From Bacteroidota bacterium (GTDB lineage: Bacteria; Bacteroidota; Bacteroidia; Chitinophagales; Saprospiraceae), in NCBI GenBank assembly GCA_016234735.1, contig JACRAN010000117.1, forward strand, positions 1-64,000: a DNA stretch of 64,000 nucleotides. The letters run 5' to 3'. The translations under genes and the position numbers were made by a program. Of this stretch, positions 629 through 62,862 are shown piece after piece; the first letter of the stretch is position 1, and each line of letters starts with the position of its first letter. The notes beneath the pieces are model-generated. The model did not search any database. It was not told the DNA's origin and saw nothing but the letters and a program-made list of their open reading frames with translations.

Positions 629-717
629 GCTGGTTGGCGTTTTGGCTGGTTGATGTTTTGGCAAAATTAGCTGCTTCGCAACCCAATACGCCAAAACGCC
701 AACCAGCCAAAACGCCC
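629..717. repeat. Word-repeat hairpin between ruvX and def
   Basis: Left arm repeats GGTTGGCGTTTTGGCTGGTT-like words. The right arm carries their reverse complement, GCCAAAACGCCAACCAGC. A perfect 18-bp pairing joins 629-646 and 690-707, around a loop of about 43 nt. The element fills the whole gap and its right end touches the ruvX stop codon. The same word returns at 1158-1253 on the other side of ruvX. Confidence 0.8.
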
Positions 718-1137
718 TTAAAATTTACCAATGCTTTTCAAATAATCTTCCAGAATCAGGGCGGCGCTCACCTTGTCCACCAGCGACTTGTCACGGCGCT
801 TTTTTTTGCCGATGCCGCTTTGCAAAATGACCTGTTTGGCGGCCTCGGAAGTGTAGCGCTCATCCTGCATAACCACTTGAACGTCAGGGAATTGCTTGCG
901 CAATTTGTTGACGAAACCCTTCACCAGATGGGCAATCTGCGCCGGATTCCCGTCAGGGTACAGCGGCTCGCCCACCACGATGGTTTCCACCACCTCCTCC
1001 AGCAGGTACTTTTCGATGAACCCCAACAACTCCTGCGTGTGGATGGTTGTCAGGCCCGAAGCGATGATTTGCAGCGGGTCGGTGACGGCGATGCCGGTGC
1101 GCTTGGTGCCGTAGTCGATTCCCATGATTCTTGGCAT
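718..1137 (-). CDS. ruvX: RuvX/YqgF family Holliday junction resolvase-like nuclease
   Basis: RNase H-fold protein of about 139 residues. Family members are implicated in Holliday junction resolution and in pre-16S rRNA 5' end processing. The start MPRIMGIDYGTKRTGIA shows the N-terminal catalytic Asp in GIDYGxKRxG. The motif VVGEPLYPDGN is the counterpart of the usual VVGLPxxxDG, and the tail carries QDERYTSEAA, the second acidic motif. Reading can extend upstream to 1251, but those codons run through a word-repeat hairpin and are not credible, so the ATG at 1137 is chosen. The gene is bracketed on both sides by hairpins built from the same GGCGTTTTGG word. Confidence 0.93.
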   Translation of the reverse strand: MPRIMGIDYGTKRTGIAVTDPLQIIASGLTTIHTQELLGFIEKYLLEEVVETIVVGEPLYPDGNPAQIAHLVKGFVNKLRKQFPDVQVVMQDERYTSEAAKQVILQSGIGKKKRRDKSLVDKVSAALILEDYLKSIGKF

Positions 1138-1157
1138 GGCCGCAAAGATAATTTTAA

Positions 1158-1253
1158 CTGGCGTTTTGGGAACTTGGCGTTTTGGCGCATTGGTAAAATT
1201 TGTTGCTGCTTCCATCCAACACGCTAAAACGCCAATCAGCCAACACGCCAAAA
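1158..1253. repeat. Word-repeat hairpin upstream of ruvX
   Basis: Left part 1158-1193 repeats CTGGCGTTTTGGGAACTTGG-like words. Right part 1212-1253 carries the complementary ACGCTAAAACGCCAATCAGC type. It uses the same word as the hairpin at 629-717. It fills the gap between the ruvX start and the stop codon of the upstream aminopeptidase gene at 1255. Confidence 0.75.
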
Positions 1254-1254
1254 A

Positions 1255-3900
1255 TCACGGTTTCAGCGCGGGGTCGGGGAACGCTGCGTACATATTCTTC
1301 ACCCGGTCGTCCGTCTCCCAGCCTTTGATTCGCTGGATGATTTTCACGATTTCGGCATCTGTTGCTTTGAGTTCCAATTGCCTGGCCGGGTCGTTTTCTT
1401 CTTCGATTTTATTGGCCAAAACTGCGTGCAACTCGTTGATGCTCTTGGTGGACATGAAGCGCATCCAGAACATTTTCTGGGCGTTCAGGGCAATGCCGCT
1501 GATGTTTTCGGCGGCCTTCAACATGCCTGCACCATCAGCTTTTTGGGCGAGTTTGGCGTAGTTCTGCACGAACCCGGCCTGGCTGTACCCGCCCACTTTT
1601 CCGAATTTTTCTTCGAAAAATGTCAACCGCTGCGGGTCGCCCGCCTCCGAGTACAGGCCGGCCACTGCGAGGATGATGCTTTCGTCGTCTTCTTTTTCCA
1701 GCTTTTTGGCAGCGCCGAGGGCAGCGTCCTTGTCCATCACGAGCAGGGTTTCCAGTGCTGCCGACACGACCTTGATGGCGGGGTCGTTTTCGATGGCCCT
1801 GGTCACCAACGGGGCGTATTTTTTGTCTTCGGTTCCGCCGAGTTTCCGAATGGCCGACTCCCGCACGTCGGAGTTGGGGTCTTTTTCGGCCATCTGCGCA
1901 ATGCGTTCCAGCGACTTGTCCTCCATTTTTGAGTTTTCGATGGCAAACAACCGGAAGAGCCAGAATTTTTCGTCCAGCGCTTTTTTTACCACTGCCTGCG
2001 CTTCCGGCGAATCGCTCTCGGTGATTTCGCCCAACGCCCGGATGCGGTGGAGGAAGTTGGGGGCATGTTCGTACTGGTAGATGTACTCGGCCAGGTTTTT
2101 TTCATCGTTGACCTGCGCAAGCAACACGCCGTCGCCATCGAACACGATGAGGTCGGGGTCATGGTCGGCTTCCAGCGTGAAGGTCTGCTGGCGCTGGTTG
2201 ATGCGCACGTTGTGTCGGGTCATTTTGCCCCCGGCGTACACGTCGATGGCCACCGGCAGCACGAACACCGGCGGCATCTCGGCAGCAGCCTGCTCCTGCG
2301 AAACCGTCACCGTCACCTGCTTCAACGCATCGTCGTAGTCGTACTCCACGTTCAGTTCCGGCTGGCCCTCACTGAAAAACCACTGGTTGAAAAACCAGTT
2401 CAGGTCTTCGCCGGTCACGTCCTCGAAAGCGAGGCGAAGCTCGTGGGCCTCCACGTCGGTGAAGGCGTTTTTCTTCAAATAATTTTGCAGCGCCGCAAAA
2501 AAAGCGTCGTCGCCCACGTAGTTGCGGAGCATGTGCAGTACGAGGCCGCCCTTGTTGTAGCTGTGCGCATCGAACATGTCCTCCTTGTCCTCGTAGCCGA
2601 AATGGATGAGCGGATGCACCCCCTGCGCCGCCGACTGCATGTAGCCGTTCAGTTCCGTGAGGCGGTGGAAATCGGCCTCGTCCCTGCCGTGCTTGTGCTC
2701 CAGCCAGAGGTACTCGCTGTAATTGGCGAAGCCCTCGTTCAGCGTCAGGTTCGACCAGCTTTCGCAGGTCACGTAGTCGCCGAACCAGTGGTGGAACATC
2801 TCGTGCGCCACGATATTTTCGTTCTGTCGGTTGTCCACCAGTTCGCGGTCGGTGCCCTGCATGAACTCGCCGAAAACGATGGCCGTCGTGTTCTCCATGG
2901 CCCCGGACACGTAGTCGCGCACCACTACCTGCGAGAGTTTTTGCCACGGGTACTCTACGCCGAGCCTGTCTGAAAAAAACTGGAGCATCTCCGGCGTGTA
3001 GGGGAAAATGTTGCGGGCGTATTTTTCAAACTTCGGCTCCACGTAGTAGTCCACCGTTTTGCCGTTCCAGGTATCCTTCACCACCGCGTACTCGCCGATG
3101 GCAAGCATGACGAGGTACGGGGCATGGGGCAGGTCCATTTTCCAGTAGTCGGTGCGGGTACCGTCGCTGTTTTTTTTCGAAGAAACAAGTACGCCGTTCG
3201 AGAGCGTTTTGAAACGGTCTTCCACCGTCATGGTGATTTCGTCGGTGGCCCGTTCGTTGGGTTTGTCGATGGTGGGGAACCAGCGGGAGTTGTTCTCCGT
3301 CTCGCCCTGTGTCCAGATTTGCTGGGGCTTGCCGTCCTCCTCGCCTTTCGGGTTGATGAAAAACAGGCCCTTGTCGGAACTGATGGCCGCACTGCCGCCC
3401 GACTCGGCAGGCGTGGCCGTGTAGTCGATGAAGAGTTTGTACTCCTGATTTCGGTTGAAAGTTTTACCGAGATGGATGGTCACCTTGCTGCTGTCGTAGT
3501 CGTATTTCAGCGGCTCGTTGCTGCCCTCGAACGTGATTTTGTGAAACTCGAACCCTTTGGCATCCAACACCACTTTGTCGGTGGGGTAGAAGTAGGGTTT
3601 CAGCGTGAGCGTCGCTTTGCCCAGCACCTGCTGCTTCTGCCAGTCGAAGCGGAGGTCGAGTTTGGTGTGCAGCAGGTCGCTCTCCCGTTTGGCGCTGGGG
3701 TTGTAGCTCGGCAGCGTGTAGGAGTCCGTGTCGTTTGCTTCGAGGGGGGCATCCTCTTCGGCGTACTCACTGGGGGCGGTGACGGTGACGGTGTCGAGGT
3801 CCACGTAGTCCGTCTCCGGCAGTAGGATGGCCGAATACTTTTTCGGGGCGCAACTTCCCAGCAGGGAGAAGGCCAGCAACAAAAACAGGAATTTTTTCAT
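1255..3900 (-). CDS. M1 family zinc aminopeptidase, lipoprotein with C-terminal HEAT-like region
   Basis: Predicted surface or periplasmic aminopeptidase of about 881 residues. The chosen ATG at 3900 gives a lipoprotein signal (MKKFLFLLLAFSLLGSC, lipobox LGSC, Cys17). An in-frame upstream extension to 3984 lacks signal-like character. M1 hallmarks are the substrate-binding GAMEN at 333-337, zinc motif HEMFH at 366-370 and the distal zinc Glu in LNEG near 389. After the catalytic and thermolysin-like domains, the last 250 or so residues carry alpha-helical pairs (ALDEKFWLFRLFAIENS, DPNSDVRESAIRKLG) that look like HEAT repeats in place of a classical ERAP-like C-domain. It probably trims peptides outside the cytoplasm. 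Its substrate cannot be told. Confidence 0.93.
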   Translation of the reverse strand: MKKFLFLLLAFSLLGSCAPKKYSAILLPETDYVDLDTVTVTAPSEYAEEDAPLEANDTDSYTLPSYNPSAKRESDLLHTKLDLRFDWQKQQVLGKATLTLKPYFYPTDKVVLDAKGFEFHKITFEGSNEPLKYDYDSSKVTIHLGKTFNRNQEYKLFIDYTATPAESGGSAAISSDKGLFFINPKGEEDGKPQQIWTQGETENNSRWFPTIDKPNERATDEITMTVEDRFKTLSNGVLVSSKKNSDGTRTDYWKMDLPHAPYLVMLAIGEYAVVKDTWNGKTVDYYVEPKFEKYARNIFPYTPEMLQFFSDRLGVEYPWQKLSQVVVRDYVSGAMENTTAIVFGEFMQGTDRELVDNRQNENIVAHEMFHHWFGDYVTCESWSNLTLNEGFANYSEYLWLEHKHGRDEADFHRLTELNGYMQSAAQGVHPLIHFGYEDKEDMFDAHSYNKGGLVLHMLRNYVGDDAFFAALQNYLKKNAFTDVEAHELRLAFEDVTGEDLNWFFNQWFFSEGQPELNVEYDYDDALKQVTVTVSQEQAAAEMPPVFVLPVAIDVYAGGKMTRHNVRINQRQQTFTLEADHDPDLIVFDGDGVLLAQVNDEKNLAEYIYQYEHAPNFLHRIRALGEITESDSPEAQAVVKKALDEKFWLFRLFAIENSKMEDKSLERIAQMAEKDPNSDVRESAIRKLGGTEDKKYAPLVTRAIENDPAIKVVSAALETLLVMDKDAALGAAKKLEKEDDESIILAVAGLYSEAGDPQRLTFFEEKFGKVGGYSQAGFVQNYAKLAQKADGAGMLKAAENISGIALNAQKMFWMRFMSTKSINELHAVLANKIEEENDPARQLELKATDAEIVKIIQRIKGWETDDRVKNMYAAFPDPALKP

Positions 3901-4120
3901 TGAACTTTTTTCTGAAGGCTTTAGAAAATGAGCCTGTGCCGCCGGTTGGAAGGCTGCAAAAAAGGCGGGCAAAGATAAAGACAAATGCGGAAGGGCAGTG
4001 GTGGTTGGGATAGTTATTTGGCTGGTTGGATGACATTGGATTCCCGTAGACTGGTCTTAAAAATCCTCGAAAACAGGCAGTCTACACACGGGATTTGTGT
4101 TGGCTGCCTGTTCCAATCAA

Positions 4121-4798: not shown

Positions 4799-4981
4799 TT
4801 TGTAAACTTTTGTAGAGCGCTCTAAATAGAGAACCCTGGTGAATGAATTAAGAACTTGTGATGCCTGAATAAATTGGTAGGCAAAAGACCAAGACAATTT
4901 TCAGACAACAAGTTTTAAACGGTGCCAGCAAGAAAATTATTATTGGTCAGAATTGCAATCTATCGAGACTGGTATAAAAAG

Positions 4982-5012
4982 AAAAGCCCACTTGAAAATC
5001 AGGTGGGCTTTT
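4982..5012 (-). terminator. Rho-independent terminator after the DUF4249 gene
   Basis: Stem AAAAGCCCAC (4982-4991) pairs perfectly with GTGGGCTTTT (5003-5012) around an 11-nt loop. On the minus strand it is followed by a T-rich run. It lies 25 bp after the stop of the DUF4249 gene and ends that transcript. Confidence 0.85.
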
Positions 5013-5036
5013 CCGTTTTCACAAGTATTCATTCCA

Positions 5037-5909: not shown

Positions 5910-5956
5910 TCTGACTATCATGGATGGTAAAAATTTTTGATTGAAAAATGGCTCCC

Positions 5957-15330: not shown

Positions 15331-15457
15331 TGATTCATTGTTTCACGGTTTCATTGTTTCATTGTTTCATTGTTTCATGGTTTTATGGCTTCGTTGTTTC
15401 ATGGCAGACGTGTAGCAATGAAACCGTGTAGCCATGAAGCCATGCATCAATGAAACC
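15331..15457. repeat. Word-repeat hairpin between birA and cinA
   Basis: Left arm 15331-15402 has about seven copies of ATTGTTTC/ATGGTTTCA-type words. Right arm 15414-15457 has the complement CAATGAAACC, GCCATGAAGCC. The birA stop (TCA, 15447-15449) is inside a right-arm word, so birA ends RFH-stop written by GGTTTCATTGA. The same ATTGTTTCAT word forms the hairpin at 20332-20398. Confidence 0.85.
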
Positions 15458-19779: not shown

Positions 19780-19847
19780 GTTGATCCGATTATTTGTTGA
19801 TTTGTTGATGGGAGAATAAACGAATAAACAAATCGACAAATCAACAG
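19780..19847. repeat. Word-repeat hairpin after the LOG gene
   Basis: Left arm has TTGATCCGATTATTTGTTGA and TTTGTTGATG words. The right arm, with almost no loop, has GAATAAACAAATCGAC and AAATCAACAGC. TTTGTTGATTTG-type words recur around the four-helix-bundle gene near 62304-62862. Confidence 0.75.
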
Positions 19848-20331: not shown

Positions 20332-20398
20332 TGTATTGTTTCATTGCTTCACTGTTTCATGGCCTCTTGGGGCAAAGCAATGAAACAGTGAAGCAATG
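20332..20398. repeat. Word-repeat hairpin after the small membrane protein gene
   Basis: A perfect 19-bp inverted repeat, CATTGCTTCACTGTTTCAT at 20342-20360 and its complement at 20380-20398, is made of repeated CATTGTTTCA words. The element starts right at the stop codon and shares its word with 15331-15457. Confidence 0.88.
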
Positions 20399-20434
20399 TT
20401 AACACCGCCGTTAAAAAAATACTATCGTTGCGAA

Positions 20435-20470
20435 GCGCCACAACCTTGCAAGTTGTGGCGCATTATTTTT
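20435..20470 (+). terminator. Hairpin with T-rich tail, terminator-like
   Basis: GCGCCACAAC (20435-20444) pairs perfectly with GTTGTGGCGC (20452-20461) around a 7-nt loop and is followed by ATTATTTTTG. It lies 33 bp before the start of the next gene, so it could end the upstream transcript. The tail TATTTTTG also resembles a -7 promoter box for the gene at 20503. Confidence 0.55.
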
Positions 20471-20502
20471 GCCAACTGCATTGAAAATCAAACCTTTTTG
20501 AA

Positions 20503-20964
20503 ATGAAACAATCAATCTTTTTTGCGCTGGCATTTTTTACTGCAAGCGCCGTTTTTGCACAAGAGAACCCGGTGAAATGGTCCTACGAGGCCAAAAAAAT
20601 AGCCGACGGCCCCACGGGGGCAGGCCAGTACGACCTCGTCTTCACCGCCAACATCCAGGACGGCTGGTACGTGTACTCGCAGTACCTCGAATCGGACGAT
20701 GGCCCCATCCGCACGTCCTTTCATTTTGATGAAAACGCTTCGGTGGAATTGCCGGGAAAGAACAAGGAAGAAGGCCACAAGTACGAGGGCTACGACGACC
20801 TGTTCGGCATGAACATCATCAAGTTCAGCGGTAGGCCGACCTTCACGCAGCGGGTCAGGACGGTTTCACCGGCCACGCTCACCGGCTACCTCGAATTCAT
20901 GACTTGTGACAACGAAAAATGCCTGCCACCGGCAGAGGTGAAGTTTCGTTTTGACCTGAAATAA
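20503..20964 (+). CDS. Secreted single-domain DsbD-alpha-like protein
   Basis: Protein of 153 residues with a signal peptide (ALAFFTASAVFAQ) and a single N-terminal-DsbD-like immunoglobulin fold. It shares GWYVYSQYLESDDGPIRTSF with both N-terminal domains of the DsbD encoded immediately downstream. The C-terminus is MTCDNEKCLPPAEVKF, with the paired Cys of the redox-active alpha domain. In DsbD this domain passes electrons from the membrane domain to periplasmic partners. A free copy could act as a soluble shuttle (inference). The 137-bp gap to dsbD contains a -7-like box, so the pair may be separate transcripts. Confidence 0.82.
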   Translation: MKQSIFFALAFFTASAVFAQENPVKWSYEAKKIADGPTGAGQYDLVFTANIQDGWYVYSQYLESDDGPIRTSFHFDENASVELPGKNKEEGHKYEGYDDLFGMNIIKFSGRPTFTQRVRTVSPATLTGYLEFMTCDNEKCLPPAEVKFRFDLK

Positions 20965-21101: not shown

Positions 21102-23648
21102 ATGAGGAAGTTTTGGACACTTTCGTTTTTCCTGACGCTCGCCCTGACCGCCTTCGGTCAAATTTACAACCCGGTCAAGTGGAGTTTTTCCTCCAAACAA
21201 GTCAGCGACACAGAATTCAACCTGCTGTTCACCGCCAATATCGAGAGCGGTTGGTACGTGTATTCACAGTACCTCTCCAGCGACGACGGGCCGGTGAAAA
21301 CCAGTTTCACCTTCAACAAAGGCAGCCATTTCAGCCTTGTTGGTAAAAACATCGAGACCTCAGACCACCGCAAGGAGTTGAATGACCCGCTTTTTGAAAA
21401 TATGCTGGTCATCAAGTTCTCGGACAAGGTCGTTTTCAGCCAAAAAGTGAAAGTGACGGACTTCTCCAAGCCCATCGCCGGCTATCTCGAATTTATGACC
21501 TGCAACAACGAACGTTGCCTGCCACCGAAAGAGGTCGATTTTTCTTTTGAGCTAAAACCTGCCACTAAAAGTGCTGATAACCAGCCGGTTAAAACGGAAG
21601 CTGCCGCCGGTTCCAAAACAACAAAACCTGCCGAAACCACCACCACTGCTGTACCCGCCGACCCAAAAATCCCGGCATCCGACCTCGGCAGCGGCATCGA
21701 AAAGCCGGTCGCCTGGTCGGCCACCATTCAAAAAAACAGCGAGACGGAGTACGTGCTGCACCTGAAAGCCACGATTGAAAAAGGCTGGGCGGTGTACTCG
21801 CAGTTCGTGGCCGATGGCGGCCCGATACCCACTTCCCTGACTTTCAACACGGACGACAACCTCCAGGTGACGGGCAAGGCCACGGAAACCAGCGCCCATA
21901 AAATCGAAGGCCACGACCCGATTTTCGATATGAAGGTCATCAAGTTTAAAGAGGAGGGGACGTTCAGCCAGAAGTTGACCGTGAAAGATGCCACGAAACC
22001 TGTGACTGGCTTCGTGACCTACATGACCTGCAACGACGAGAAGTGCCTGCCACCAGACGATGTGCCGTTCAAAATTGTGCCTGCTTCACTGACGGCAATG
22101 ATTGGTGCCGAAGCGGAAGAGAACGGGCAGGTTGCGGAAGCGCCAACGGCGGGTTTCGCCATCGACAAAACCGCCGCCGCCACTTGCGGCGAGGTCGCTC
22201 AGGAAAACGAAGGCAAGGGCATCTGGGGCATTTTCATCCTTGGATTCCTCGGCGGCCTGCTGGCCCTGCTCACGCCCTGCGTTTTCCCGATGATCCCGCT
22301 GACGGTGAGTTTTTTCACCAAAGGCAGCCAGAACAAGAAAAAAGGGTTGTTCAACGCCTTCATGTACGGTTTTTACATTTTGCTGGTCTATCTGTTGCTG
22401 AGTATCCCGTTCCATCTGCTGGACTCGGTCAGCCCCGGCATCCTCAATGAAATCTCCACCAACGTCTGGCTGAATATCGCCTTTTTTGTCATATTCCTCG
22501 TCTTCGCTTTTTCGTTTTTCGGATACTACGAACTCACGCTGCCGTCCAGTTGGGCCAACAAAGCGGCATCGGCGGAAGGCATCGGAGGTGCCATCGGCAT
22601 ATTTTTCATGGCCCTGACGCTGGCGCTGGTGTCGTTTTCCTGCACCGGCCCCATCCTCGGTTCGCTGCTCGCAGGTGCCCTGACCAAAGACGGCGGTGCC
22701 ATGCAACTGACGGCGGGCATGGGCGGCTTCGGCCTCGCCCTGGCGTTGCCGTTCGGGCTGTTCGCTGCGTTCCCAAGCTGGTTGAGTTCCCTGCCAAAAT
22801 CAGGGGGCTGGATGACGACGGTGAAAGTGGTGCTCGGCTTCCTCGAACTGGCGCTGGCCTTGAAGTTCCTCTCCAACGCTGACCTCGTGAAGCACTGGGG
22901 CATGTTGAAAATCGAACCGTTCCTCCTGCTGTGGATCCTTATTTTCGTGGCAATGGGGTTTTATCTTTTTGGCAAGATCGGGTTCCCACACGACTCGCCC
23001 ATCAAGAAATTGGCACCACTCCGCATCGCCACGGGGGTAGCTTCGTTTGCCTTCGCCGCTTATTTGGCCACCGGGTTCATCTACGATGATACAGCGGGGT
23101 CGCTTCGCCCGCTGAAACTGCTGAGTGGACTGGCACCGCCTGCCGGCTACAGTTGGCTCTACCCAAAGGAGTGCCCGCAAAACCTCGATTGTTTCAAAGA
23201 CTTCGACCAGGGGCTGGCCTACGCCAAAAAAATGAACAAACCCATCATGATCGACTTCACCGGCCACGCTTGTGTGAACTGCCGCAAGATGGAGGAACAC
23301 GTCTGGCCGGAACAGGAGGTTTACGGTTTTTTGAAGAAAGACTTCGTGCTCATCTCGCTGTACGTGGACGAGAAAATCGACTTGCCGGAGGCCGAACAAA
23401 AGGTTTTGCCGGTGAAAAGCGGCGGCACCTTCCGGTTGCGCACCACCGGCCACAAGTGGCAGTACCTGCAAACCGAGACGTTTGAAAACAACTCGCAACC
23501 CTACTACGTACTGCTCTCACCGGAGGGCAAAATGCTGAACCACCCGGTCGGTTACACGCCTGATTCGGAGGAATACGCTCATTTCCTCCAGTGCGGCCTC
23601 GACCGTTTCAATGAATTGAACGGAAAGAAAATGCTGGGAGAAAAGTGA
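21102..23648 (+). CDS. dsbD: Thiol:disulfide interchange protein DsbD with duplicated N-terminal domain
   Basis: Protein of 848 residues that carries electrons across the inner membrane to periplasmic thiol proteins. Order: signal peptide (about 1-19); first DsbD-alpha domain (20-150, ending MTCNNERCLPPKEV); a Thr/Pro/Lys linker (150-197); second alpha domain (200-335, MTCNDEKCLPPDDV); CcdA-like membrane domain of eight helices (about 375-660) with the paired Cys in LLTPCVFPM and SFSCTGPILG; and a C-terminal thioredoxin domain with CVNCRKME (Cys about 724 and 727). All redox Cys pairs are present. The doubled alpha domain plus the stand-alone copy upstream make three in a row. Confidence 0.94.
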   Translation: MRKFWTLSFFLTLALTAFGQIYNPVKWSFSSKQVSDTEFNLLFTANIESGWYVYSQYLSSDDGPVKTSFTFNKGSHFSLVGKNIETSDHRKELNDPLFENMLVIKFSDKVVFSQKVKVTDFSKPIAGYLEFMTCNNERCLPPKEVDFSFELKPATKSADNQPVKTEAAAGSKTTKPAETTTTAVPADPKIPASDLGSGIEKPVAWSATIQKNSETEYVLHLKATIEKGWAVYSQFVADGGPIPTSLTFNTDDNLQVTGKATETSAHKIEGHDPIFDMKVIKFKEEGTFSQKLTVKDATKPVTGFVTYMTCNDEKCLPPDDVPFKIVPASLTAMIGAEAEENGQVAEAPTAGFAIDKTAAATCGEVAQENEGKGIWGIFILGFLGGLLALLTPCVFPMIPLTVSFFTKGSQNKKKGLFNAFMYGFYILLVYLLLSIPFHLLDSVSPGILNEISTNVWLNIAFFVIFLVFAFSFFGYYELTLPSSWANKAASAEGIGGAIGIFFMALTLALVSFSCTGPILGSLLAGALTKDGGAMQLTAGMGGFGLALALPFGLFAAFPSWLSSLPKSGGWMTTVKVVLGFLELALALKFLSNADLVKHWGMLKIEPFLLLWILIFVAMGFYLFGKIGFPHDSPIKKLAPLRIATGVASFAFAAYLATGFIYDDTAGSLRPLKLLSGLAPPAGYSWLYPKECPQNLDCFKDFDQGLAYAKKMNKPIMIDFTGHACVNCRKMEEHVWPEQEVYGFLKKDFVLISLYVDEKIDLPEAEQKVLPVKSGGTFRLRTTGHKWQYLQTETFENNSQPYYVLLSPEGKMLNHPVGYTPDSEEYAHFLQCGLDRFNELNGKKMLGEK

Positions 23649-23740
23649 TTTGATTTACGATTGACGATTTTGGATTTACGATTCTAAAAAGTTGAAAGTC
23701 AAATAATTAGAATCGTAAATCCGCAATCGTCAGTCGTCAT
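23646..23740. repeat. Word-repeat hairpin between dsbD and recX
   Basis: Left arm 23646-23687 has GATTTGATTTACGATTGACG words. Right arm 23707-23740 is complementary, with a perfect 16-bp pairing GGATTTACGATTCTAA (23672-23687) to 23707-23722. The dsbD stop touches the left end. The recX stop (23730-23732) is inside the right arm, so the final Asp-Asp-stop of RecX is written by the word GACGACTGA. Confidence 0.88.
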
Positions 23741-26050: not shown

Positions 26051-26129
26051 GTTGAAATATGAGGTTGATAAGGGTTGATAGGAGGTTGATAATCAACTTT
26101 TTATCAACCTCTTAAAACCTTCATCAACG
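26051..26129. repeat. Word-repeat hairpin between rhomboid and O-antigen ligase genes
   Basis: Left arm has GAGGTTGATAAGGGTTGATA words. The right arm, directly adjoining, has ATCAACTTTTTATCAACCTC and CTTCATCAAC. The perfect core is GAGGTTGATA with TATCAACCTC. It begins right at the rhomboid start codon and ends 9 bp before the stop of the O-antigen ligase gene. Confidence 0.82.
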
Positions 26130-27451: not shown

Positions 27452-27614
27452 AAGGATTGAAGGATTGGGGGGACTGAGGGATTGAAGGGACGAGAGTTTG
27501 AGGGTTTTTAAAAGAACCAATCATTACCTTTGCGCCTTACTTTTGAAAGGGTTTGACAGGAAAAAGATTGTAGCCAGCCTCCAATCCTGCATTCCTTCAA
27601 CCCCCCAATCCTTG
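27452..27614. repeat. Word-repeat arms bracketing a divergent promoter region
   Basis: Left arm 27452-27489 has AAGGATTGAAGGATTGGGGG words just upstream of the O-antigen ligase start. Right arm 27578-27614 has the complement CCCCCCAATCCTTG and lies 6 bp before the pheS start. The 88-nt interval holds TACCTTTG at 27525-27532, a -7-like box for pheS. Each arm would be in the 5' leader of one gene. Confidence 0.78.
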
Positions 27615-31106: not shown

Positions 31107-32570
31107 ATGGAACCTTCTCATTTACGCCGGTTAATGGCAACGCTGATTTCTTTGTTCTTCCTCTCTCAAATTGACGCAAACACCCCCTCCTTCAATACCG
31201 ACGAAATCAAGCTCCGCTTCGAAGCGATGGCGTGCATAGTGACTCCCCGCTACACCACAGAAGTGGAAAGCTACATCAAAAGATACCTTGCCTACAACGG
31301 TTCAACCGCCAAGCGGGTAATGGGGCGTGCCGCCGAGTATTTTCCCATTTTTGAAAAATACTTGGACGAGCACAACCTGCCGCAGGATTTGAAATACTTA
31401 GCCATCGTGGAGTCGGCGCTGAACCCGACCGCCGTTTCACCGGCAGGGGCAAGGGGTCTCTGGCAGTTCATGAGCCAAACCGGCCGCAACTACGCCCTCG
31501 ACATCAATAAGAACGTGGACGAACGCTATTGCCCGTACAACTCCACCGAGGCTGCCATGCAATACCTGGCACACCAATTCGAGCGATTTGGCACTTGGGA
31601 GCTGGCGCTGGCTGCCTACAACTGCGGGGCCGGGGTCATCAACAACGCCATGAAACGGGCCAGGACGCAGGATTACTGGGCGCTGTCAAAATACCTGCCC
31701 CGTGAAACGAGGAACTTCGTGCCTGCTTTCCTCGGCGCAGCCTACGTTGCCAACTACTATCACCTGCACGACATTGAGCCTGATTACCCCAGCCTTGACA
31801 TGCAACTCACCGAGGCCGTGAAAGTATTTGATCGCCTCGATTTCACAACCATCGCTGCCGTCACGGCGCTTCCGGTCGAAGTGGTCACACAACTCAACCC
31901 TGCTTTCAAAAACAAATTTGTCCCTGAAAGACCGGAGGGCCACCTGGTGATTTTGCCGCAGCGCGTAGCGTCCGCCCTCACGGAATATCAAAATGCACTT
32001 CGCCCTGACAACGGCGAAAAAATTGAGTTGCCGCCCCTGCCCGCGCTGGTTGACACCAGCACGTACAAACCGGAGGAGCGCTATTTCAAATCGGCGTACA
32101 TCGTGACCGGGGGCGACAAAATCGACTTGTTGGCCTATCTTTTTAAATGCACTCCGTACAACATCAAAGTCTGGAACAACCTGACTTCTTACACGCTGAA
32201 GGACGGCCAGGAACTTTCGATTTGGTTCCCGACCGAGTACCACCATTTCTTGCCGGAGGAGGAAAAAATCGAAGTAGCCCCGACTGCCGCCCTCAACTCA
32301 CCTGCATCAGCGCCGGAAGTAGTGATGGTACGTGAAGTAATTCCCGTGCCCAGCGAAATGCCCGCTTTGAAACCAAAAATCAGCACCACGACCAAACCGG
32401 CAGTGAAACTGGCACCAGCCATCCCTCTGAAAAAACAGGAGGTTGCTCCGAAGAAAAAGCCAGCGGCCCCGTCCGTAAAGAAAAAGCCGGCAGCACCTTC
32501 CCAGAAGAAACCCACTGTGCCAAAACCAGCGCCGAAAGTTAGCGTACAAACAGGCCACGGGATTCTCTGA
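31107..32570 (+). CDS. Membrane-bound lytic transglycosylase with LysM region (MltD-like)
   Basis: About 487 residues from ATG 31107. The N-terminal segment MATLISLFFLSQIDA is a signal or anchor. The SLT domain (about 75-230) has the catalytic Glu in YLAIVESALNPTAVSPAGARGLWQFM, then ALAAYNCGAGVINNAM. A LysM-type peptidoglycan-binding region follows (FDRLDFTTIAAVTAL, and KSAYIVTGGDKIDLLAYLFKCTPYNIKVWNNL). The last 70 residues are low-complexity Lys/Pro/Ala (KKKPAAPSVKKKPAAPS), a basic tail that might contact the wall or nucleic acid. The enzyme cleaves glycan strands to 1,6-anhydro-muropeptides. It has a good promoter 175 bp upstream and a terminator after it. Confidence 0.9.
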   Translation: MEPSHLRRLMATLISLFFLSQIDANTPSFNTDEIKLRFEAMACIVTPRYTTEVESYIKRYLAYNGSTAKRVMGRAAEYFPIFEKYLDEHNLPQDLKYLAIVESALNPTAVSPAGARGLWQFMSQTGRNYALDINKNVDERYCPYNSTEAAMQYLAHQFERFGTWELALAAYNCGAGVINNAMKRARTQDYWALSKYLPRETRNFVPAFLGAAYVANYYHLHDIEPDYPSLDMQLTEAVKVFDRLDFTTIAAVTALPVEVVTQLNPAFKNKFVPERPEGHLVILPQRVASALTEYQNALRPDNGEKIELPPLPALVDTSTYKPEERYFKSAYIVTGGDKIDLLAYLFKCTPYNIKVWNNLTSYTLKDGQELSIWFPTEYHHFLPEEEKIEVAPTAALNSPASAPEVVMVREVIPVPSEMPALKPKISTTTKPAVKLAPAIPLKKQEVAPKKKPAAPSVKKKPAAPSQKKPTVPKPAPKVSVQTGHGIL

Positions 32571-46890: not shown

Positions 46891-47472
46891 ATGCAACGAC
46901 AAGTACAGGCATTCTTGCCTACGGATTGGGGAAACTTTAACATCATCGCCTACGCCGGGTCGGCTGACGACCTGACGCCGCATGTCGCTTTGGTGCATGA
47001 AAATTTAGACCCCGCCCGGCCCGTACTCGTACGCATCCACTCGGAGTGCATGACCGGCGATTTGTTCCACTCCCGCCGCTGCGATTGTGGGGAGCAATTG
47101 GACAAGGCGCTTGAAATGGCGGCAAGGGAAGGCGGCGCGGTGATTTACCTCCGCCAGGAAGGGCGGGGCATTGGCCTCATCAACAAACTGAAAGCGTACA
47201 ACCTGCAAGACCAAGGCTTCAACACCGCCAACGCCAACACGCACCTCGGCTTCGAGGTGGATGCCCGGCAGTACGGCCTGGCGGTTGAAATCCTGAACGA
47301 CCTCGGCATCCGCCAGATCCGCCTGCTCACCAACAACCCGCTGAAAATCGAAGCCATCGAACACTCCGGCATCGAAATCGTCAGCCGGGAGCCGCTCGTC
47401 ATCGAACCAAAAAAGGAAAATGCCGCCTACTTGCGTACGAAGCGGGAAGTGATGGGGCACCTTTTGAAATAG
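46891..47472 (+). CDS. ribA: GTP cyclohydrolase II
   Basis: About 193 residues from ATG 46891, the single-domain form that opens the imidazole ring of GTP in riboflavin synthesis. Zinc ligands are Cys53, Cys64 and Cys66 in HSECMTGDLFHSRRCDCGEQL. The catalytic loop is YLRQEGRGIGLINKLKAY, and LLTNNPLKIEAIEHSGIEIV ends the active site. The more common RibBA fusion would have an N-terminal DHBP synthase domain, which is absent here. No other rib gene is in the window. Confidence 0.95.
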   Translation: MQRQVQAFLPTDWGNFNIIAYAGSADDLTPHVALVHENLDPARPVLVRIHSECMTGDLFHSRRCDCGEQLDKALEMAAREGGAVIYLRQEGRGIGLINKLKAYNLQDQGFNTANANTHLGFEVDARQYGLAVEILNDLGIRQIRLLTNNPLKIEAIEHSGIEIVSREPLVIEPKKENAAYLRTKREVMGHLLK

Positions 47473-47534
47473 TTGAAAATGGAGAATTGAAAATTACAAA
47501 TTATCCATGTGATGCGTTTTCAATTTTCAATTAA
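47472..47534. repeat. Word-repeat hairpin between ribA and xth
   Basis: Left arm has GTTGAAAATGGAGAATTGAAAATT. The right arm has GTTTTCAATTTTCAATTAA. Words TTGAAAATTGAAAA pair with TTTTCAATTTTCAA. It spans the gap exactly from the ribA stop codon to the xth stop codon (47531-47533). Confidence 0.78.
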
Positions 47535-50945: not shown

Positions 50946-50949
50946 ATAG

Positions 50950-51108: not shown

Positions 51109-51756
51109 ATGTCCATCCAAATTGCAGGCAGGTCTTTCCAGCCCAACCCGACTACCTACCCGGTCTGGTGGGCCATCATCAATCTGGGCATTTTGCTGTA
51201 CGGCATCCTGTTCCTGAAATGGAGCCTCGAACCTGTCATTTTCCTGTTTTGGATGGAAATCATTTTCTCCATCGGGGCAGCGCTGGTGCGGGCAGCTTTT
51301 GCCCTGGAGGGCCAGCCGTTCATGGCCACACTGCTCCGCAGGATTTTCCTCGTGGGCGCCGGAGCGGTGCTCGGCGTCGGCTTCATTCTGCTGACGGTTA
51401 CTTTCACCATCCATGCCTTCCACGATGCCTCCGGGCTGGTTGGGTCCAACCTTCAACTTCAAATGTTTTTGCTGCTGCTGAATTACTTGGCAGCGCTGGT
51501 GTTCCATTTTTTCCTGAACGGGCGCTTCCGGTCGGCCAGCCCGATCGGTGAGTTGATGAGCACCTTCGTGTACCTGCTGGTGCTGCTTTGCCTCATCATG
51601 GTGGTCACGATGCACCTGCTGCCGAAGTTCCCGGCGCTGAACCAGTCGCTGTGGGTCGGCTTGGCGGTGGTGGGCATAAAATTCGGTGTGGATTTGCTTT
51701 TCTGGAAAGTAAAAAGAGTGAAACCTGAAATATTGGAGGTGAGAGGCGAGGAGTGA
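51109..51756 (+). CDS. DUF6498-like polytopic membrane protein
   Basis: Protein of 215 residues with five or six membrane helices (about 20-38, 42-62, 80-100, 115-135, 145-168, 178-196). The start MSIQIAGRSFQPNPTTYPVWWAII is followed by a WSLEPVIFLFWMEIIF segment that resembles DUF6498 proteins, assigned with moderate confidence. Function unknown. The last residues (EVRGEE-stop) are read from a GGAGGTGAGAGGCGAGGAG word repeat that forms a hairpin with the end of the convergent GNAT gene. Confidence 0.7.
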   Translation: MSIQIAGRSFQPNPTTYPVWWAIINLGILLYGILFLKWSLEPVIFLFWMEIIFSIGAALVRAAFALEGQPFMATLLRRIFLVGAGAVLGVGFILLTVTFTIHAFHDASGLVGSNLQLQMFLLLLNYLAALVFHFFLNGRFRSASPIGELMSTFVYLLVLLCLIMVVTMHLLPKFPALNQSLWVGLAVVGIKFGVDLLFWKVKRVKPEILEVRGEE

Positions 51757-51836
51757 GAAGCGAGGTTTTAAAGAATTCAAGGGTTTTCCTCACCGCCTCA
51801 GCTCTCGCTGTCTCACCTCTCACTTCTCACCGCTCC
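51735..51836. repeat. Word-repeat hairpin joining two convergent genes
   Basis: Left arm 51735-51765 has GGAGGTGAGAGGCGAGGAG words. Right arm 51788-51836 has CTCACCTCTCACTTCTCACC and related words. Both stop codons (51754-51756 plus strand and 51820-51822 minus strand) lie inside the arms. It uses the GTGAGAGG word family. Confidence 0.85.
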
Positions 51837-53752: not shown

Positions 53753-54162
53753 GTAGGTGACTTGCGTCTTGTTGGAAAATCCTTTTTCTTACGAAAAAAC
53801 CTCGTAATTGTTGGGGAATTGCAGCAAATGTAAATGTTTTTTTGCATGGTTCGGCGGGCAAATCGTTAATTGACAGGAAATCAGGCTGCCGCATCGTACA
53901 ACCAGCGTGTTTTTAAAAAACTGCACACCGCAGAAAAAATGCCCTTGCGGTCTAATTTTGACGCCGTATTTCTGTTGGACTTTGGACACTCAACCCAATC
54001 GTTCCGTAGGAACGAAATCTTTGTAGGGGCACCAAATGAAATTTTACCCGTTCCGTAGGAACGGCATCTGAGCATCTACAAAGATTTCGTTCCTACGGAA
54101 CGATTGGGTTGAGTGTCCAAAATCTAAATTTCTGAGCTTCACCTTCTAAGAAAACACAAGCC
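53753..54162. other. Intergenic region holding a 46-bp perfect inverted repeat
   Basis: About 410 bp between divergent genes. Apart from the repeat at 53981-54121 and a -7-like box near 53825, no gene or terminator was seen. Confidence 0.5.
53981..54121. repeat. REP-like element, 46-bp perfect inverted repeat
   Basis: Arms 53981-54026 and 54076-54121 are exact reverse complements, with a 49-nt loop. Each arm contains CGTTCCGTAGGAACG, itself palindromic. A third copy (CCGTTCCGTAGGAACGG) is in the loop. It resembles palindromic repeats associated with REP-type transposases in Bacteroidota and other phyla, but no such transposase gene is in the window. Confidence 0.85.
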
Positions 54163-55245
54163 ATGACGATTGAGGAAAACATCCGCAAAGCCTCCACCCT
54201 GCCGGGCGCATTCTACCGGGACAAAGCAGTTTTTGAAACGGTGAAGGAAAAAATCTTTGCGGCCACCTGGCACTACGTGGCCGATGCCGGGGTGGTGAAA
54301 AATCCCGGCGACGTGCATCCCTTCACACTGCTGCCCGGCGTGCTCGACGAACCGCTCGTGCTGGCCCGCGACCGGGAGGGCCATCTGCGCTGCCTCTCCA
54401 ACGTCTGCACGCACCGGGGGAAAATCATCGTGGAGCAGCCCGGCAACCTGGGGATGCTGCGCTGCGGCTACCACGGCCGCTGCTTCCGGTTGGACGGTTC
54501 GTTCAAGAGCATGCCTGAATTTCAACAGGCTGAAAATTTTCCGACCAAAGATGACGACCTCACGCAAGTGCCTGTACATCAGTGGCTTGGGATGATTTTC
54601 GTGTCGCTCCAGCCGACATTCGATTTCGAGGAGGCCACCCGGCCCATCCGCGAGCGCATCGGGTTTCTGCCGCTGGAGCAGTTGAGATTTCACGAAGAGG
54701 GTACGCAGGACTACTTCGTGGCTGCCAATTGGACGCTCTACTGCGACAACTTTCTGGAGGGTTTTCACATCCCGTTCGTGCATCCGGCGCTGAACCAAGC
54801 GCTGGACTTCGGGCAGTACGGCTACCAGCTTTTCCGCTACTGCAACCTCCAGGTCGGCATTGCCGAAGACGGCCAACCGCACTTCGACATCCTGCCCGAC
54901 CAGCCGGATTTTGGAAAAAAAATCTACGCCTGGTATTTTTGGCTGTTCCCGAACCTGATGCTGAATTTTTACCCCTGGGGCCTCTCCCTCAACGTCGTGG
55001 AGCCACTCGGCCACGACCGCACGAGGATTGCTTTCAGGACCTATCGATTTGAAAACCAGCCGTTTAACAGAGGTGAAAATCAATTGGAAAAAACGGAATT
55101 CGAAGATGAGGCTGTGGTGGAAAGTGTGCAGCGGGGCATCCAGTCGAGGTTCTACCGGCAGGGCCGTTTTTCACCGACGATGGAGCAGGGGGTGCATCAT
55201 TTTCACAGGCTGGTGGCGGAGTTTTTAGACAGTTTTGATTGTTGA
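54163..55245 (+). CDS. Rieske [2Fe-2S] aromatic-ring-hydroxylating-type oxygenase, alpha subunit
   Basis: Protein of 360 residues. The Rieske centre ligands are Cys82 and His84 (CTHRG), and Cys101 and His104 (CGYHGR). The mononuclear iron site appears at Asp195, His202 and His207 in YCDNFLEGFHIPFVHP. This resembles the choline monooxygenase/RHO alpha-subunit group, where the SRPBCC domain binds the substrate. No reductase or ferredoxin gene is adjacent, and the physiological substrate is unknown. The last residues (DSFDC-stop) come from a GATTGTTGATTG word repeat. It lies just after a large inverted repeat. Confidence 0.9.
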   Translation: MTIEENIRKASTLPGAFYRDKAVFETVKEKIFAATWHYVADAGVVKNPGDVHPFTLLPGVLDEPLVLARDREGHLRCLSNVCTHRGKIIVEQPGNLGMLRCGYHGRCFRLDGSFKSMPEFQQAENFPTKDDDLTQVPVHQWLGMIFVSLQPTFDFEEATRPIRERIGFLPLEQLRFHEEGTQDYFVAANWTLYCDNFLEGFHIPFVHPALNQALDFGQYGYQLFRYCNLQVGIAEDGQPHFDILPDQPDFGKKIYAWYFWLFPNLMLNFYPWGLSLNVVEPLGHDRTRIAFRTYRFENQPFNRGENQLEKTEFEDEAVVESVQRGIQSRFYRQGRFSPTMEQGVHHFHRLVAEFLDSFDC

Positions 55246-55391
55246 TTGTTGATTGACGATGTGATGGCTGATGGCCAATTTCGGTAATGAGTTCAAAACG
55301 GTGGATGGCAAGGAACGCCCAATCATCCGTTTTACATCTCACATTCCATCAAAAATCAACAATCATGTAATCAACAATCGTCAATCAAAAC
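55233..55391. repeat. Word-repeat hairpin between the Rieske gene and gcvT
   Basis: Left arm 55233-55276 has GATTGTTGATTGTTGATTG and TGATGGCTGATGG words. Right arm 55335-55391 has AATCAACAATCGTCAATC and CATCTCACATTCCATC. A 58-nt loop separates the arms. The Rieske stop codon lies in the left arm. Confidence 0.85.
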
Positions 55392-55409
55392 CACTCAATA
55401 AAATATTCG

Positions 55410-56528: not shown

Positions 56529-56536
56529 ATTATCTT

Positions 56537-58634: not shown

Positions 58635-58674
58635 TGATTTCTATTACTTCAATTCTCGTTCACACGCCTTCAAG

Positions 58675-58787
58675 ATGTGAGAAGTGAGAGGGTGAGAATG
58701 TGAGGTTCAATCCCGATAACTATCGGGATGAATTTGAGCATTTTAAATTCAAATCACTTTCTCAAAAAACTCACGGCTCAATAGTTT
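58675..58787. repeat. Composite dispersed repeat, copy 3
   Basis: GATGTGAGAAGTGAGAGGGT words are followed by a near-palindrome ATCCCGATAACTATCGGGAT (58710-58729), then AATTTGAGCATTTTAAATTC and a tail with CACTTTCTCAAAAAACTCAC. It matches copy 2 at 50950-51052 in order and sequence with few changes. Confidence 0.8.
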
Positions 58788-58813
58788 TCACACGCTTTTT
58801 TCAAAAAAAAAAA

Positions 58814-61411: not shown

Positions 61412-61730
61412 CGGTTGTTTTACGTGGCGAATGGGTGTTTTGAGTGGCTGCGTTTGGGTTCAAGATTTATTTTGACGGCTTCCCGACCCAGACTCAGCAG
61501 TCTCAAAACAAAATTACAAGGCGGCAAAACTACGAAAGGAAGTTGGGAGTTTGCAGGGTTTGATACAGCCGCATTTGTTAAAAATGCCATCGCAGACTCC
61601 CTGAACCAGCAGCGAAAAACATCGGCCTGAAAAAAAACAGCCCGCCGCCTTCCCGTCAACCGGGGCAAAAAACCAATGGTCGGGGAAAGTGGCGGGCAGG
61701 AGGTAAGTTTTTGAAAACCAGCGATTTACG
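61412..61730. other. Intergenic region between PBP1A and the GMC subunit 3 gene
   Basis: About 319 bp. The only clear element is a minus-strand terminator at 61630-61697. No gene with a convincing frame was seen. Confidence 0.5.
61630..61697 (-). terminator. Terminator after the GMC subunit 3 gene
   Basis: GCCCGCC (61640-61646) pairs with GGCGGGC (61691-61697), and TTCCC (61650-61654) with GGGAA (61683-61687). On the minus strand the hairpin is followed by eight T. It lies 34 bp after the stop of the gene at 61731. Confidence 0.75.
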
Positions 61731-62303
61731 TCAGGTGGCCCATGCAGCGCCAACCTCAGCATACGGGATGCAACCTTTGTAGTCGCCCGGCACGGGGTCG
61801 TATTTCAGGAACTCCGTGGCACCCACCTCCGAGGTGCAGAAGCCGAGAACCGTCAGTTCCTTCATCGTGCGGAAGAAATGTGGCGGCTCGTCCTTGCCCC
61901 GGTTCGGGTCATAAGCCTCGGCATCGTATTTTTTCAGCAGGTCGTCCTGCTGCTCCGGCGTCAGGGCCACGAACGATTTGCCGTGGGCGGCCTTCGCATC
62001 GGCTTCCACTTTTTTCAAGCCCTCCCGGAAGGCAGTTTTTTCTTTTTCCTGGTAAAATCCGTCCATCATCGAGTCGATGAAAGTAGGTACGCCCGCATCT
62101 TTTGCACCCGGTGTGTTGGTGCGCGGGATGATGCGCTCGGCAATGGCTTCCACGAGGCCGCCCTCTTCCGAGGTGAAATATTTGGGTGCCCAGTCGATTT
62201 TGGGTTCGGCCTTGCAGCCGCTCATCACCCCGGAAATGGCGCTGGCGGAAATCACCCCGCCCAGCAGGATGGAGGCTCTTTTTATGGCTTCTCTCCTATT
62301 CAT
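61731..62303 (-). CDS. Gluconate 2-dehydrogenase subunit 3 family protein
   Basis: Protein of 190 residues with a twin-arginine signal (NRREAIKRASILLGG) and a Cys-containing segment after it (GVMSGCK). The mature helical domain has EGGLVEAIAERIIPRTNTPGAKDAGVPTFID and EFLKYDPVPGDYKGC, the hallmark of the small subunit of membrane-bound GMC dehydrogenases. The small subunit guides folding and Tat export of the FAD-bearing subunit. The large subunit gene lies upstream on the same strand, beyond an inserted four-helix-bundle gene. The sugar or alcohol substrate is unknown. Confidence 0.88.
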   Translation of the reverse strand: MNRREAIKRASILLGGVISASAISGVMSGCKAEPKIDWAPKYFTSEEGGLVEAIAERIIPRTNTPGAKDAGVPTFIDSMMDGFYQEKEKTAFREGLKKVEADAKAAHGKSFVALTPEQQDDLLKKYDAEAYDPNRGKDEPPHFFRTMKELTVLGFCTSEVGATEFLKYDPVPGDYKGCIPYAEVGAAWAT

Positions 62304-62337
62304 TGTTGATTTGTTTATGTGGTGATTTGTTTATGCG
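62304..62337. repeat. Word-repeat arm, left of the four-helix-bundle gene
   Basis: TGTTGATTTGTTTATGTGG and TGATTTGTTTATGC words. The complementary words ATAAACAAAT lie 490 bp away at 62830-62862, on the other side of the four-helix-bundle gene. It also shares its word with 19780-19847. Confidence 0.75.
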
Positions 62338-62338
62338 G

Positions 62339-62371
62339 CTTGATGATATTGATGGGTTTTGCATCATCAAG
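62339..62371. other. Short hairpin between word-repeat arm and four-helix-bundle gene
   Basis: CTTGATGAT (62339-62347) pairs perfectly with ATCATCAAG (62363-62371). The loop is 15 nt. It lies just after the left arm and 33 bp after the stop (minus strand) of the four-helix-bundle gene. Confidence 0.6.
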
Positions 62372-62403
62372 CAGGCACTAAGCAATTCATCAAAATGAAA
62401 AAG

Positions 62404-62772
62404 TCAGATGTCTTTTTTGAGTTGTGCTTCACGCAATTTGTTCAACTTATTCCCGATTTCATCTATCAATGGACGTTGGCCATCAACTTCTCGCTCAGAA
62501 ATATATCCAAGGTCAACCGCTACGATGAGGTGGTTCAGCACCTCCATCAAACTCCCAAATGACATTTCGGTGTATCGGGCCTGCTCCTTGCCGGAAATTC
62601 GCCCACTGCCTTCGGCCAAATTGGAAGTTATTGAAGTACTCGCCCGTCTTATCTGCTGTACCAGGGCAAATCTTTCGTCAACAGGAAACTGGCTCGTTAT
62701 CCGATAGGTTTCCTTGACAAATTGGCGGCCTTTTTCCCAAACATCCAGTTTTTCAAATGAATATTTCTTCAT
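62404..62772 (-). CDS. Four-helix-bundle protein (S23/IVS type)
   Basis: About 122 residues from ATG 62772 (MKKYSFEKLDVWEKGRQFV). It has the typical four-helix S23 layout: LDVWEKGRQFVKETYRITSQFP, then DERFALVQQIRRASTSITSNLAEGSGR, KEQARYTEMSFGSLMEVLNHL and a last helix. The group includes proteins encoded in 23S rRNA intervening sequences and the Avd accessory proteins of diversity-generating retroelements, and is expected to form pentameric rings with basic surfaces that bind nucleic acid. Here the gene is not in an rRNA. It lies between the two subunit genes of a GMC dehydrogenase and is flanked on both sides by complementary word repeats. Confidence 0.9.
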   Translation of the reverse strand: MKKYSFEKLDVWEKGRQFVKETYRITSQFPVDERFALVQQIRRASTSITSNLAEGSGRISGKEQARYTEMSFGSLMEVLNHLIVAVDLGYISEREVDGQRPLIDEIGNKLNKLREAQLKKDI

Positions 62773-62829
62773 AAGCCTTCCAATTGACTTGGTTTCCTGC
62801 CAAATTGATATTCCAGACAGGTTTTCTGT

Positions 62830-62862
62830 CAAATAAACAAATAATCAAATCAGCAAATAAAC
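62830..62862. repeat. Word-repeat arm, right of the four-helix-bundle gene
   Basis: CAAATAAACAAATAATCAAA and CAGCAAATAAAC words complementary to the arm at 62304-62337. It lies 6 bp from the stop codon of the GMC oxidoreductase gene. Confidence 0.75.

What the first reader, a model, noticed from the sequence alone, without database searches (positions are those of the whole stretch)
629..62862. A class of locus-specific word-repeat hairpins at gene ends
About twenty intergenic elements consist of a 7-12 bp word repeated with variation, and most carry the reverse complement of the same word 0-100 nt away. Examples are 629-717, 1158-1253, 15331-15457, 19780-19847, 20332-20398, 23646-23740, 26051-26129, 27452-27614, 47472-47534, 51735-51836 and 55233-55391. 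They differ from REP or BIME elements because the word changes from locus to locus while the architecture stays. They differ from microsatellites because the two arms match each other. I know of no named class that fits. Possible roles are bidirectional transcript ends, RNA stability, or a hairpin-copying process that generates them.
Basis: partly seen in the sequence, partly recalled or inferred. Interest (0 to 1): 0.75.

Follow-up and report, generated by a model that had tools for sequence, protein, structure and literature searches.

The report
Polarised word-repeat hairpins between genes
Between many genes of this uncultured Saprospiraceae bacterium and its relatives lie hairpins built from a 7- or 8-letter DNA word repeated with variation; they follow strict placement and strand rules, and species swap one word for another at the same spot while keeping the hairpin, which shows a poorly understood copying and exchange process at work in bacterial intergenic DNA.

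Summary
All 11 named elements have repeated words beyond shuffling (p<=0.025), and 10 of 11 have matching inverted arms (p<=0.01; 51735-51836 is borderline at 0.055). In 527 kb of this genome 53 of 304 intergenic regions pass both tests, against 3 of 304 coding segments. Periodicity is sharp at 7 and 8 nt, and elements fill the gap from stop codon to the next gene.

The interpretation needs correcting. Words are not locus-specific but come from a lexicon reused across loci and species. At one orthologous site different species carry different words, a plain hairpin, or nothing. In a class-mate genus (probably Flavobacterium) one site holds a word hairpin in 24 of 24 sampled species, in three unrelated word classes that change 7-10 times on flanking-gene trees.

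An unreported rule emerged: the 5' arm is richer in G than C in 77 hairpins and poorer in 6; plain hairpins show no such bias. G-quadruplexes cannot explain it here.

Single-word heptamer relatives are published for Xanthomonas, Nostoc and Beggiatoaceae, so this is a multi-word, two-armed variant of a known kind. Best account: DNA-level slippage, fold-back copying and module exchange, probably kept as gene-end hairpins. Function is unproven; terminator and RNA-pairing signatures are weak.

The parts
629..717 (.). Word hairpin TTTTGGCG/CGCCAAAA (period 8) between the peptide deformylase and RuvX genes
   Evidence: IR score 21, p<0.005; RNA fold z -8.5
1158..1253 (.). Word hairpin TTGGCGTT (period 8) between RuvX and the M1 peptidase gene
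   Evidence: word p<0.005, IR p=0.01; RNA fold z -5.6
15331..15457 (.). Word hairpin TTTCATTG/TTTCATGG (period 8) between the CinA-like and biotin/lipoate ligase-like genes
   Evidence: 8+4 word copies; IR p<0.005
19780..19847 (.). Word hairpin TTTGTTGA (period 8) after the LOG-family (Lysine_decarbox) gene
20332..20398 (.). Word hairpin CATTGTTT (period 8) right after a stop codon; an exception to the G>C rule
   Evidence: 19-bp perfect arms
23646..23740 (.). Word hairpin ATTTACG/ATTGACG (period 7) between convergent dsbD-like and recX genes; both stop codons lie in the arms
   Evidence: IR score 22; RNA fold z -6.7; orthologous site compared across the genus
26051..26129 (.). Word hairpin AGGTTGAT between the rhomboid and O-antigen ligase-like genes
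   Evidence: RNA fold z -6.4
27452..27614 (.). Word hairpin AAGGATTG (period 8) filling a divergent gap upstream of pheS; long loop
   Evidence: word p<0.005, IR p<0.005
47472..47534 (.). Word hairpin AATTGAAA (period 7) between convergent GTP cyclohydrolase II and exonuclease/phosphatase-family genes
   Evidence: IR p=0.01; orthologous site carries at least five word types in the genus
51735..51836 (.). Weak word hairpin GTGAGAAG/GAGGTGA between convergent genes
   Evidence: word p<0.005 but IR p=0.055 and no stable RNA fold
55233..55391 (.). Word hairpin TTGATTG/ATTGACG (period 7) between convergent Rieske dioxygenase and gcvT genes; about 90-nt loop
   Evidence: IR p<0.005
62304..62403 (.). 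Further two-sided element, word TGTTGATT, in a same-strand gap
   Evidence: found by the scan

Best explanation
These are modular intergenic hairpins. Each module is an array of a 7- or 8-nt word, a loop, and the reverse complement of the array, nearly always with the G-richer, C-poor arm first on either strand, fitted into the promoter-free space between a stop codon and the next gene. Shown: architecture, 7/8 periodicity, position, polarity, shared lexicon, replacement of one word family by another at the same site. Inferred: arrays grow by 7/8-nt slippage during replication, the second arm is made by fold-back copying of the first, and finished modules spread between loci and species by recombination over the flanking genes or over the words themselves. 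Inferred and less certain: once in place a hairpin is useful as a gene-end or intercistronic element (mRNA 3'-end protection, insulation or bidirectional stop), so selection keeps the architecture while the letters are interchangeable.
For: Sharp lag peaks at 7, 8, 14 and 16, repeated in the class-mate genome G264 (lag 7: 447 against 47). Polarity: 5' arm G>C in 77, C>G in 6, p=8e-17, against plain hairpins 34:29; per word family 18:4, p=0.004; one-sided arrays obey it too, odds ratio 22, p=1e-9; G264 8:0. Word order is mirrored between arms more than under word permutation, 18 of 59 at p<0.05. Position: word copies start a median 2 nt after the stop codon and end 5 nt before the next start; convergent 23/130, same-strand 48/464, divergent 7/162. 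C-termini of preceding genes are ancestral. Replacement: GTP cyclohydrolase II site with AATTGAAA, TTCATGG, GGTTTCA, ATTGTTG and TAGGGTT/GAGTAGA words in different species; dsbD-recX site with four different words, and plain hairpins in other species. Class-mate genus: site STAS-rnz occupied in 24/24 sampled species by three classes, within-class identity 0.88 against 0.70 at third codon positions, dissimilar pairs 0.32 on average with equal flank identity; 7-10 class changes on flank trees against 10 for shuffled labels. One orthologous pair has the module in opposite orientations and a third species keeps only one arm.
Against: No RNA-level signature: on the sense strand 53 G-U against 70 A-C arm mismatches, and few compensatory changes. 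T-tracts after the stem are rare, 11% against 39% for plain hairpins. Some congeners have no module at a given site, so no single module is essential. High within-class identity can reflect recent transfer rather than constraint. The mirrored-order test is partly biased because the arms were chosen as the best pair. No replication or slippage event was seen directly.
Confidence: 0.45

Rival explanations
1. Purely neutral or selfish DNA: by-products of slippage and fold-back synthesis that are tolerated only where no promoter is disturbed (convergent gaps and operon gaps), with no function.
For: Orientation bias, module-free orthologous sites, patchy lexicon per genome, no G-U bias.
Against: 24/24 sampled species occupied with changing words at one site; convergent gaps with a word hairpin carry no separate plain hairpin (0/18 against 31/73, although little room is left).
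Confidence: 0.3
2. Bidirectional transcription terminators, intrinsic or Rho-dependent (the 3' arm is C-rich and G-poor, as Rho loading sites are).
For: Convergent enrichment; the same convergent site carries a plain hairpin, some with a U-tract, in some species and a word hairpin in others; C-rich 3' arm on both strands.
Against: T-tracts rare; many modules sit in tight same-strand gaps where termination would silence the next gene, such as pyrR-pyrB and STAS-rnz; the hairpin would hide the C-rich arm.
Confidence: 0.12
3. Arrays of binding sites for a protein (post-transcriptional regulator such as S1, Csp or CsrA, or a DNA-binding protein), as proposed for TAACTGA repeats.
For: Regular 7/8 spacing; proposed for TAACTGA in Beggiatoaceae.
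Against: Many unrelated words within one genome make a single sequence-specific binder unlikely.
Confidence: 0.07
4. A mobile element family, REP-like and moved by a RAYT/Y1 transposase, or another MITE.
For: Dispersed word families, for example ATTTACGATTTACGA 126 times in G000; hairpin form.
Against: Y1_Tnp genes occur in genomes with and without TTTACGA words and are only weak fragments in word-rich G004; loops differ between loci with the same arms; many word families of one architecture.
Confidence: 0.05
5. G-quadruplex-forming elements, as proposed for Xanthomonas and Nostoc heptamers.
For: Same strand polarity as published there.
Against: Only 2 of 87 elements hold four G3 tracts and 6 hold four G2 tracts in the arm, yet the polarity holds.
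Confidence: 0.01

Closest known systems
Xanthomonas GGGAATC and Nostoc GGGGA(C/T)T intergenic heptamer repeats (PMC4692102)
   Same: 7-nt tandem units, intergenic, within 0-50 bp of genes, overlapping stop codons, G-strand on coding strand downstream and on non-coding strand upstream of genes, divergent gaps under-represented, 70-75 inverted pairs in Xanthomonas, strong length variation between relatives
   Different: One word per genome and G4-forming; here many words per genome, 7 or 8 nt, most not G4-capable, usually two-armed, and one word family replaces another at orthologous sites
TAACTGA direct repeats of Beggiatoaceae, Cyanobacteria and five Bacteroidetes (PMC4679880)
   Same: Heptamer direct repeats in intergenic gaps, abutting start codons in one orientation and, in a noted case, just after a stop codon in the reverse orientation
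   Different: Single word, almost never inverted (one case), related heptamers rarely repeated
Cyanobacterial tandem heptanucleotides of Calothrix (cited in PMC4692102; called STRR, from memory)
   Same: Several different tandem heptamers in one genome
   Different: Two-armed hairpin form and polarity rule not known to me for STRR
REP/BIME elements (from memory)
   Same: Short intergenic hairpins at gene ends in hundreds of copies
   Different: One conserved palindrome, no tandem 7/8 words; no correlation with Y1 transposases here
Switched intergenic regions / horizontal regulatory transfer (PMC5890482)
   Same: Unrelated intergenic sequences between the same genes, incongruent with gene trees
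   Different: Here every alternative has the same hairpin architecture, and in the pyrB-STAS gap only the hairpin half is swapped while the promoter-proximal half is conserved

Membership tests
Intergenic heptamer (7-nt) repeat class (Xanthomonas/Nostoc type) | Tandem 7-nt unit over-represented in intergenic DNA | tested here: met
   Lag-7 peak 13-fold over shuffles; lag 8 also 6-fold
Intergenic heptamer (7-nt) repeat class (Xanthomonas/Nostoc type) | G-rich strand on coding strand after stop, non-coding strand before start | tested here: met
Intergenic heptamer (7-nt) repeat class (Xanthomonas/Nostoc type) | One word family per genome | tested here: not met
   At least a dozen word types in G000
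Intergenic heptamer (7-nt) repeat class (Xanthomonas/Nostoc type) | G-quadruplex capability | tested here: not met
   2 of 87
REP/BIME with RAYT | Single conserved palindrome dispersed in the genome | tested here: not met
   Many unrelated words
REP/BIME with RAYT | Associated Y1/RAYT transposase | tested here: not met
   No tracking of PF01797 with words
Intrinsic terminator | Stem followed by T-tract | tested here: not met
   11% against 39% in plain hairpins
Intrinsic terminator | Transcript 3' end at the element | not testable with these tools
   No RNA data held
Microsatellite / simple tandem repeat | Head-to-tail copies only, no inverted partner | tested here: not met
   Of strongly periodic gaps 95 two-sided, 46 one-sided
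Known RNA family (Rfam 15) | Match above gathering score | tested here: not met
   0 matches in the window
DNA uptake sequence dyads (Neisseria DUS, Haemophilus USS; from memory) | One fixed 9-12-mer, often in inverted pairs acting as terminators | tested here: not met
   Not one fixed word; uptake itself not testable

The most novel reading that the evidence does not exclude
Heptamer arrays of Xanthomonas, Nostoc and Beggiatoaceae and these word hairpins are one general bacterial phenomenon: a DNA copying process with a 7/8-nt step that extends a G-rich, C-poor strand away from gene boundaries and folds back to make the second arm (formally like two telomere-like ends pointing at each other), with cells retaining and exchanging the resulting hairpins as interchangeable gene-boundary modules.
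Probability: 0.25. Interest if true: 0.85.

Novelty: new variant of a known kind. Interest (0 to 1): 0.62.

Why it matters
Occupying about one intergenic region in six here, these modules are a major part of the non-coding genome in this genus and occur in other Bacteroidota, yet I found no description of them, and none of six sample word strings, in the searched literature. The polarity rule holds for words that cannot form G-quadruplexes, so it removes the explanation offered for the Xanthomonas and Nostoc repeats and points to one common cause. Sites where the word is replaced while the hairpin stays give a direct, testable way to separate structure from sequence, and strain collections of Flavobacterium-like bacteria could show the copying events themselves.

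Tried and rejected
Locus-unique words: rejected. One mobile family or RAYT/REP: rejected as main cause. G-quadruplex: rejected. RNA-level selection seen as G-U bias: not found. Compensatory evolution within word classes in the class-mate genus: little (1 of 39 and 3 of 20 pairs). Insertion that truncates genes: rejected, C-termini ancestral. Word supplying a particular stop codon: no excess of any stop codon (51 TGA, 34 TAA, 20 TAG against 333, 263, 114). Rfam families: none. Word strings in the literature: none found. The reversed control of the word AGTTATGAG is itself used as a word in some other genomes, so sharing of one word across the phylum is only moderate evidence for common descent of words. 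In some searches and 51 loci on the minus strand were read from the partner gene's side or the wrong end; I used only those rows in which the same gap could be recognised, so G005 and G010 at the GTP cyclohydrolase II site stay unresolved.

Full report
WHAT WAS CHECKED. The window is contig C25 of a 4.88-Mb Saprospiraceae metagenome-assembled genome. I called genes with a simple codon-model caller, tested each cited interval against dinucleotide shuffles and scanned 527 kb of this genome, 360 kb of congener G004 and smaller samples of other genomes. Every cited element has a repeated word in both orientations beyond shuffles; ten of eleven have significant arms. Two-sided elements occupy 53 of 304 intergenic regions here and 34 of 215 in G004, against 3 of 304 and 1 of 215 coding controls. 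Without any selection of elements, exact 6-mer repeats in intergenic DNA peak at distances 7, 8, 14 and 16 only. So the feature is real, and the unit is 7 or 8 nt.

WORDS ARE A SHARED LEXICON. Words such as ATTTACG, AGTTATG, AATTGGG, AATTGAAA, GGATTGAA, GAATTGTT, TTTCATTG, GGACGGT, TAGATTT and GAACTATGAACGATG recur at many loci and in several species. ATTTACGATTTACGA occurs 126 times in this genome, 74 in G001, 88 in G006 and 141 in another genus (G044), never in five congeners, with one hit of the reversed-string control in 61 genomes. AGTTATGAGTTATGAG occurs in 30 of 396 phylum members.

PLACEMENT. Word copies begin a median 2 nt after the stop codon and end a median 5 nt before the next start codon. 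Convergent gaps are most often occupied (23/130), then same-strand (48/464), and divergent gaps least (7/162). Upstream proteins keep their ancestral C-termini, so these are not insertions into genes. Convergent gaps with a word hairpin have no separate plain hairpin (0/18 against 31/73), although little room is left for one.

POLARITY, A NEW RULE HERE. In 77 of 83 decided cases the 5' arm has more G than C (579 G, 170 C in all); plain hairpins in the same genomes are balanced (34:29). Counted by word family it is 18:4. One-sided arrays follow the same rule: the G-richer strand runs away from whichever gene boundary the array touches. The class-mate genome G264 agrees, 8:0, while its plain hairpins lean the other way, 12:22. 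Intergenic DNA next to stop codons has no such skew by itself (3351 G, 3435 C). The same rule can be read from published data on GGGAATC repeats of Xanthomonas and GGGGA(C/T)T of Nostoc, where it was tied to G-quadruplexes; here only 2 of 87 elements could form one.

EVOLUTION AT ORTHOLOGOUS SITES. The convergent dsbD-recX gap holds ATTTACG words here, GTCTATT words in G009, GGACGGT words in G006 and AGATTTA words in G004, ordinary hairpins in G001, G003, G005 and G010, and a short gap without a hairpin in G008. The GTP cyclohydrolase II gap holds AATTGAAA words in G000, G004 and G013, TTCATGG in G007, GGTTTCA in G001, ATTGTTG in G006 and G012, TAGGGTT/GAGTAGA in G003, and none in G008 and G011. 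One module is present in G009 as a perfect 37-bp hairpin, in G001 in the opposite orientation, and in G004 as a single-arm relic. In a large class-mate genus (Flavobacterium by size and gene order, my inference) the STAS-rnz gap (gene names also my inference) is occupied in 24 of 24 sampled species by three unrelated classes of word hairpin. Identity within a class averages 0.88 against 0.70 at third codon positions of the flanks; dissimilar pairs average 0.32 with the same flank identity. Class changes on flank trees number 7-10, close to the 10 of shuffled labels. In the neighbouring pyrB-STAS gap only the hairpin half is exchanged and the promoter-proximal half is conserved. So modules are replaced as wholes, often, and the architecture is kept.

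MECHANISM. Shown: the anatomy and the replacement. Suggestive: word variants are mirrored in order between arms more than under permutation, as expected if one arm was copied from the other. Against an RNA-level role: no excess of G-U over A-C mismatches on the sense strand, few compensatory changes and few T-tracts. I therefore favour DNA-level growth by 7/8-nt slippage, fold-back copying, and exchange by recombination, with retention of the hairpin as a useful gene-boundary element as the less certain second half. Neutral tolerance of the same products is the strongest rival.

NOVELTY. Single-word heptamer arrays are known (PMC4692102; PMC4679880, including five Bacteroidetes). New here are the many-word lexicon, the regular two-armed form, the polarity for words that cannot form quadruplexes, and the replacement of words at fixed sites. 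I call it a new variant of a known kind.

LIMITS. Gene calls are home-made. The genomes are mostly metagenome assemblies. Sites for ortholog comparison were chosen because this genome is occupied there, and the 24 class-mate species are those with the best DNA match to a region chosen for its elements. Loci of one word family are not independent, and single linkage over-merges families. No transcript data and no strain-level data were available.

Noticed in passing
window 53981-54121: A 46-bp perfect inverted repeat with a 49-bp loop containing CGTTCCGTAGGAACG, in the divergent gap upstream of the Rieske gene. A related GTTCCTACGGAA sequence lies near gcvT in G001 (L250), and one arm piece matches G003 (L212); possibly a separate REP-like family.
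   Followed up: partly
L262-L285, pyrB-STAS gap: Flavobacterium-like word hairpins carry nested inner hairpins such as GTCAGGCTGAGCGAAGTCGAAG...CTTCGACTTCGCTCAGCCTGAC or GCAAAGTTCGC arrays in their loops, as if one repeat had landed in the loop of another.
   Followed up: no
window 20332-20505; L142:15260-15483; L093:1966-2096; L104:15871-16086: A conserved GCGCCACAACC...GGTTGTGGCGCATTATTTTTG hairpin next to a likely promoter upstream of the small dsbD-like gene, kept in G000, G009, G004 and G001 while the neighbouring word module changes.
   Followed up: no
L219 (G006) and L228 (G012): Next to the one-sided ATTGTTG array downstream of GTP cyclohydrolase II both species seem to carry a small inserted gene that reads like a four-helix-bundle (23S IVP-like) protein (identity from reading only).
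   Followed up: no
L176-L178 (G003), L227: Congener G003 has very long arrays in gaps, for example GAGTAGA and TAGGGTT repeats and GGCCTTCGGCCGTTGAATTGTTGAA units.
   Followed up: no
window 32450-32510: In-frame 27-nt tandem repeat inside a called gene (consensus GAAGAAAAAGCCAGCAGCACCGTCCCA).
   Followed up: no
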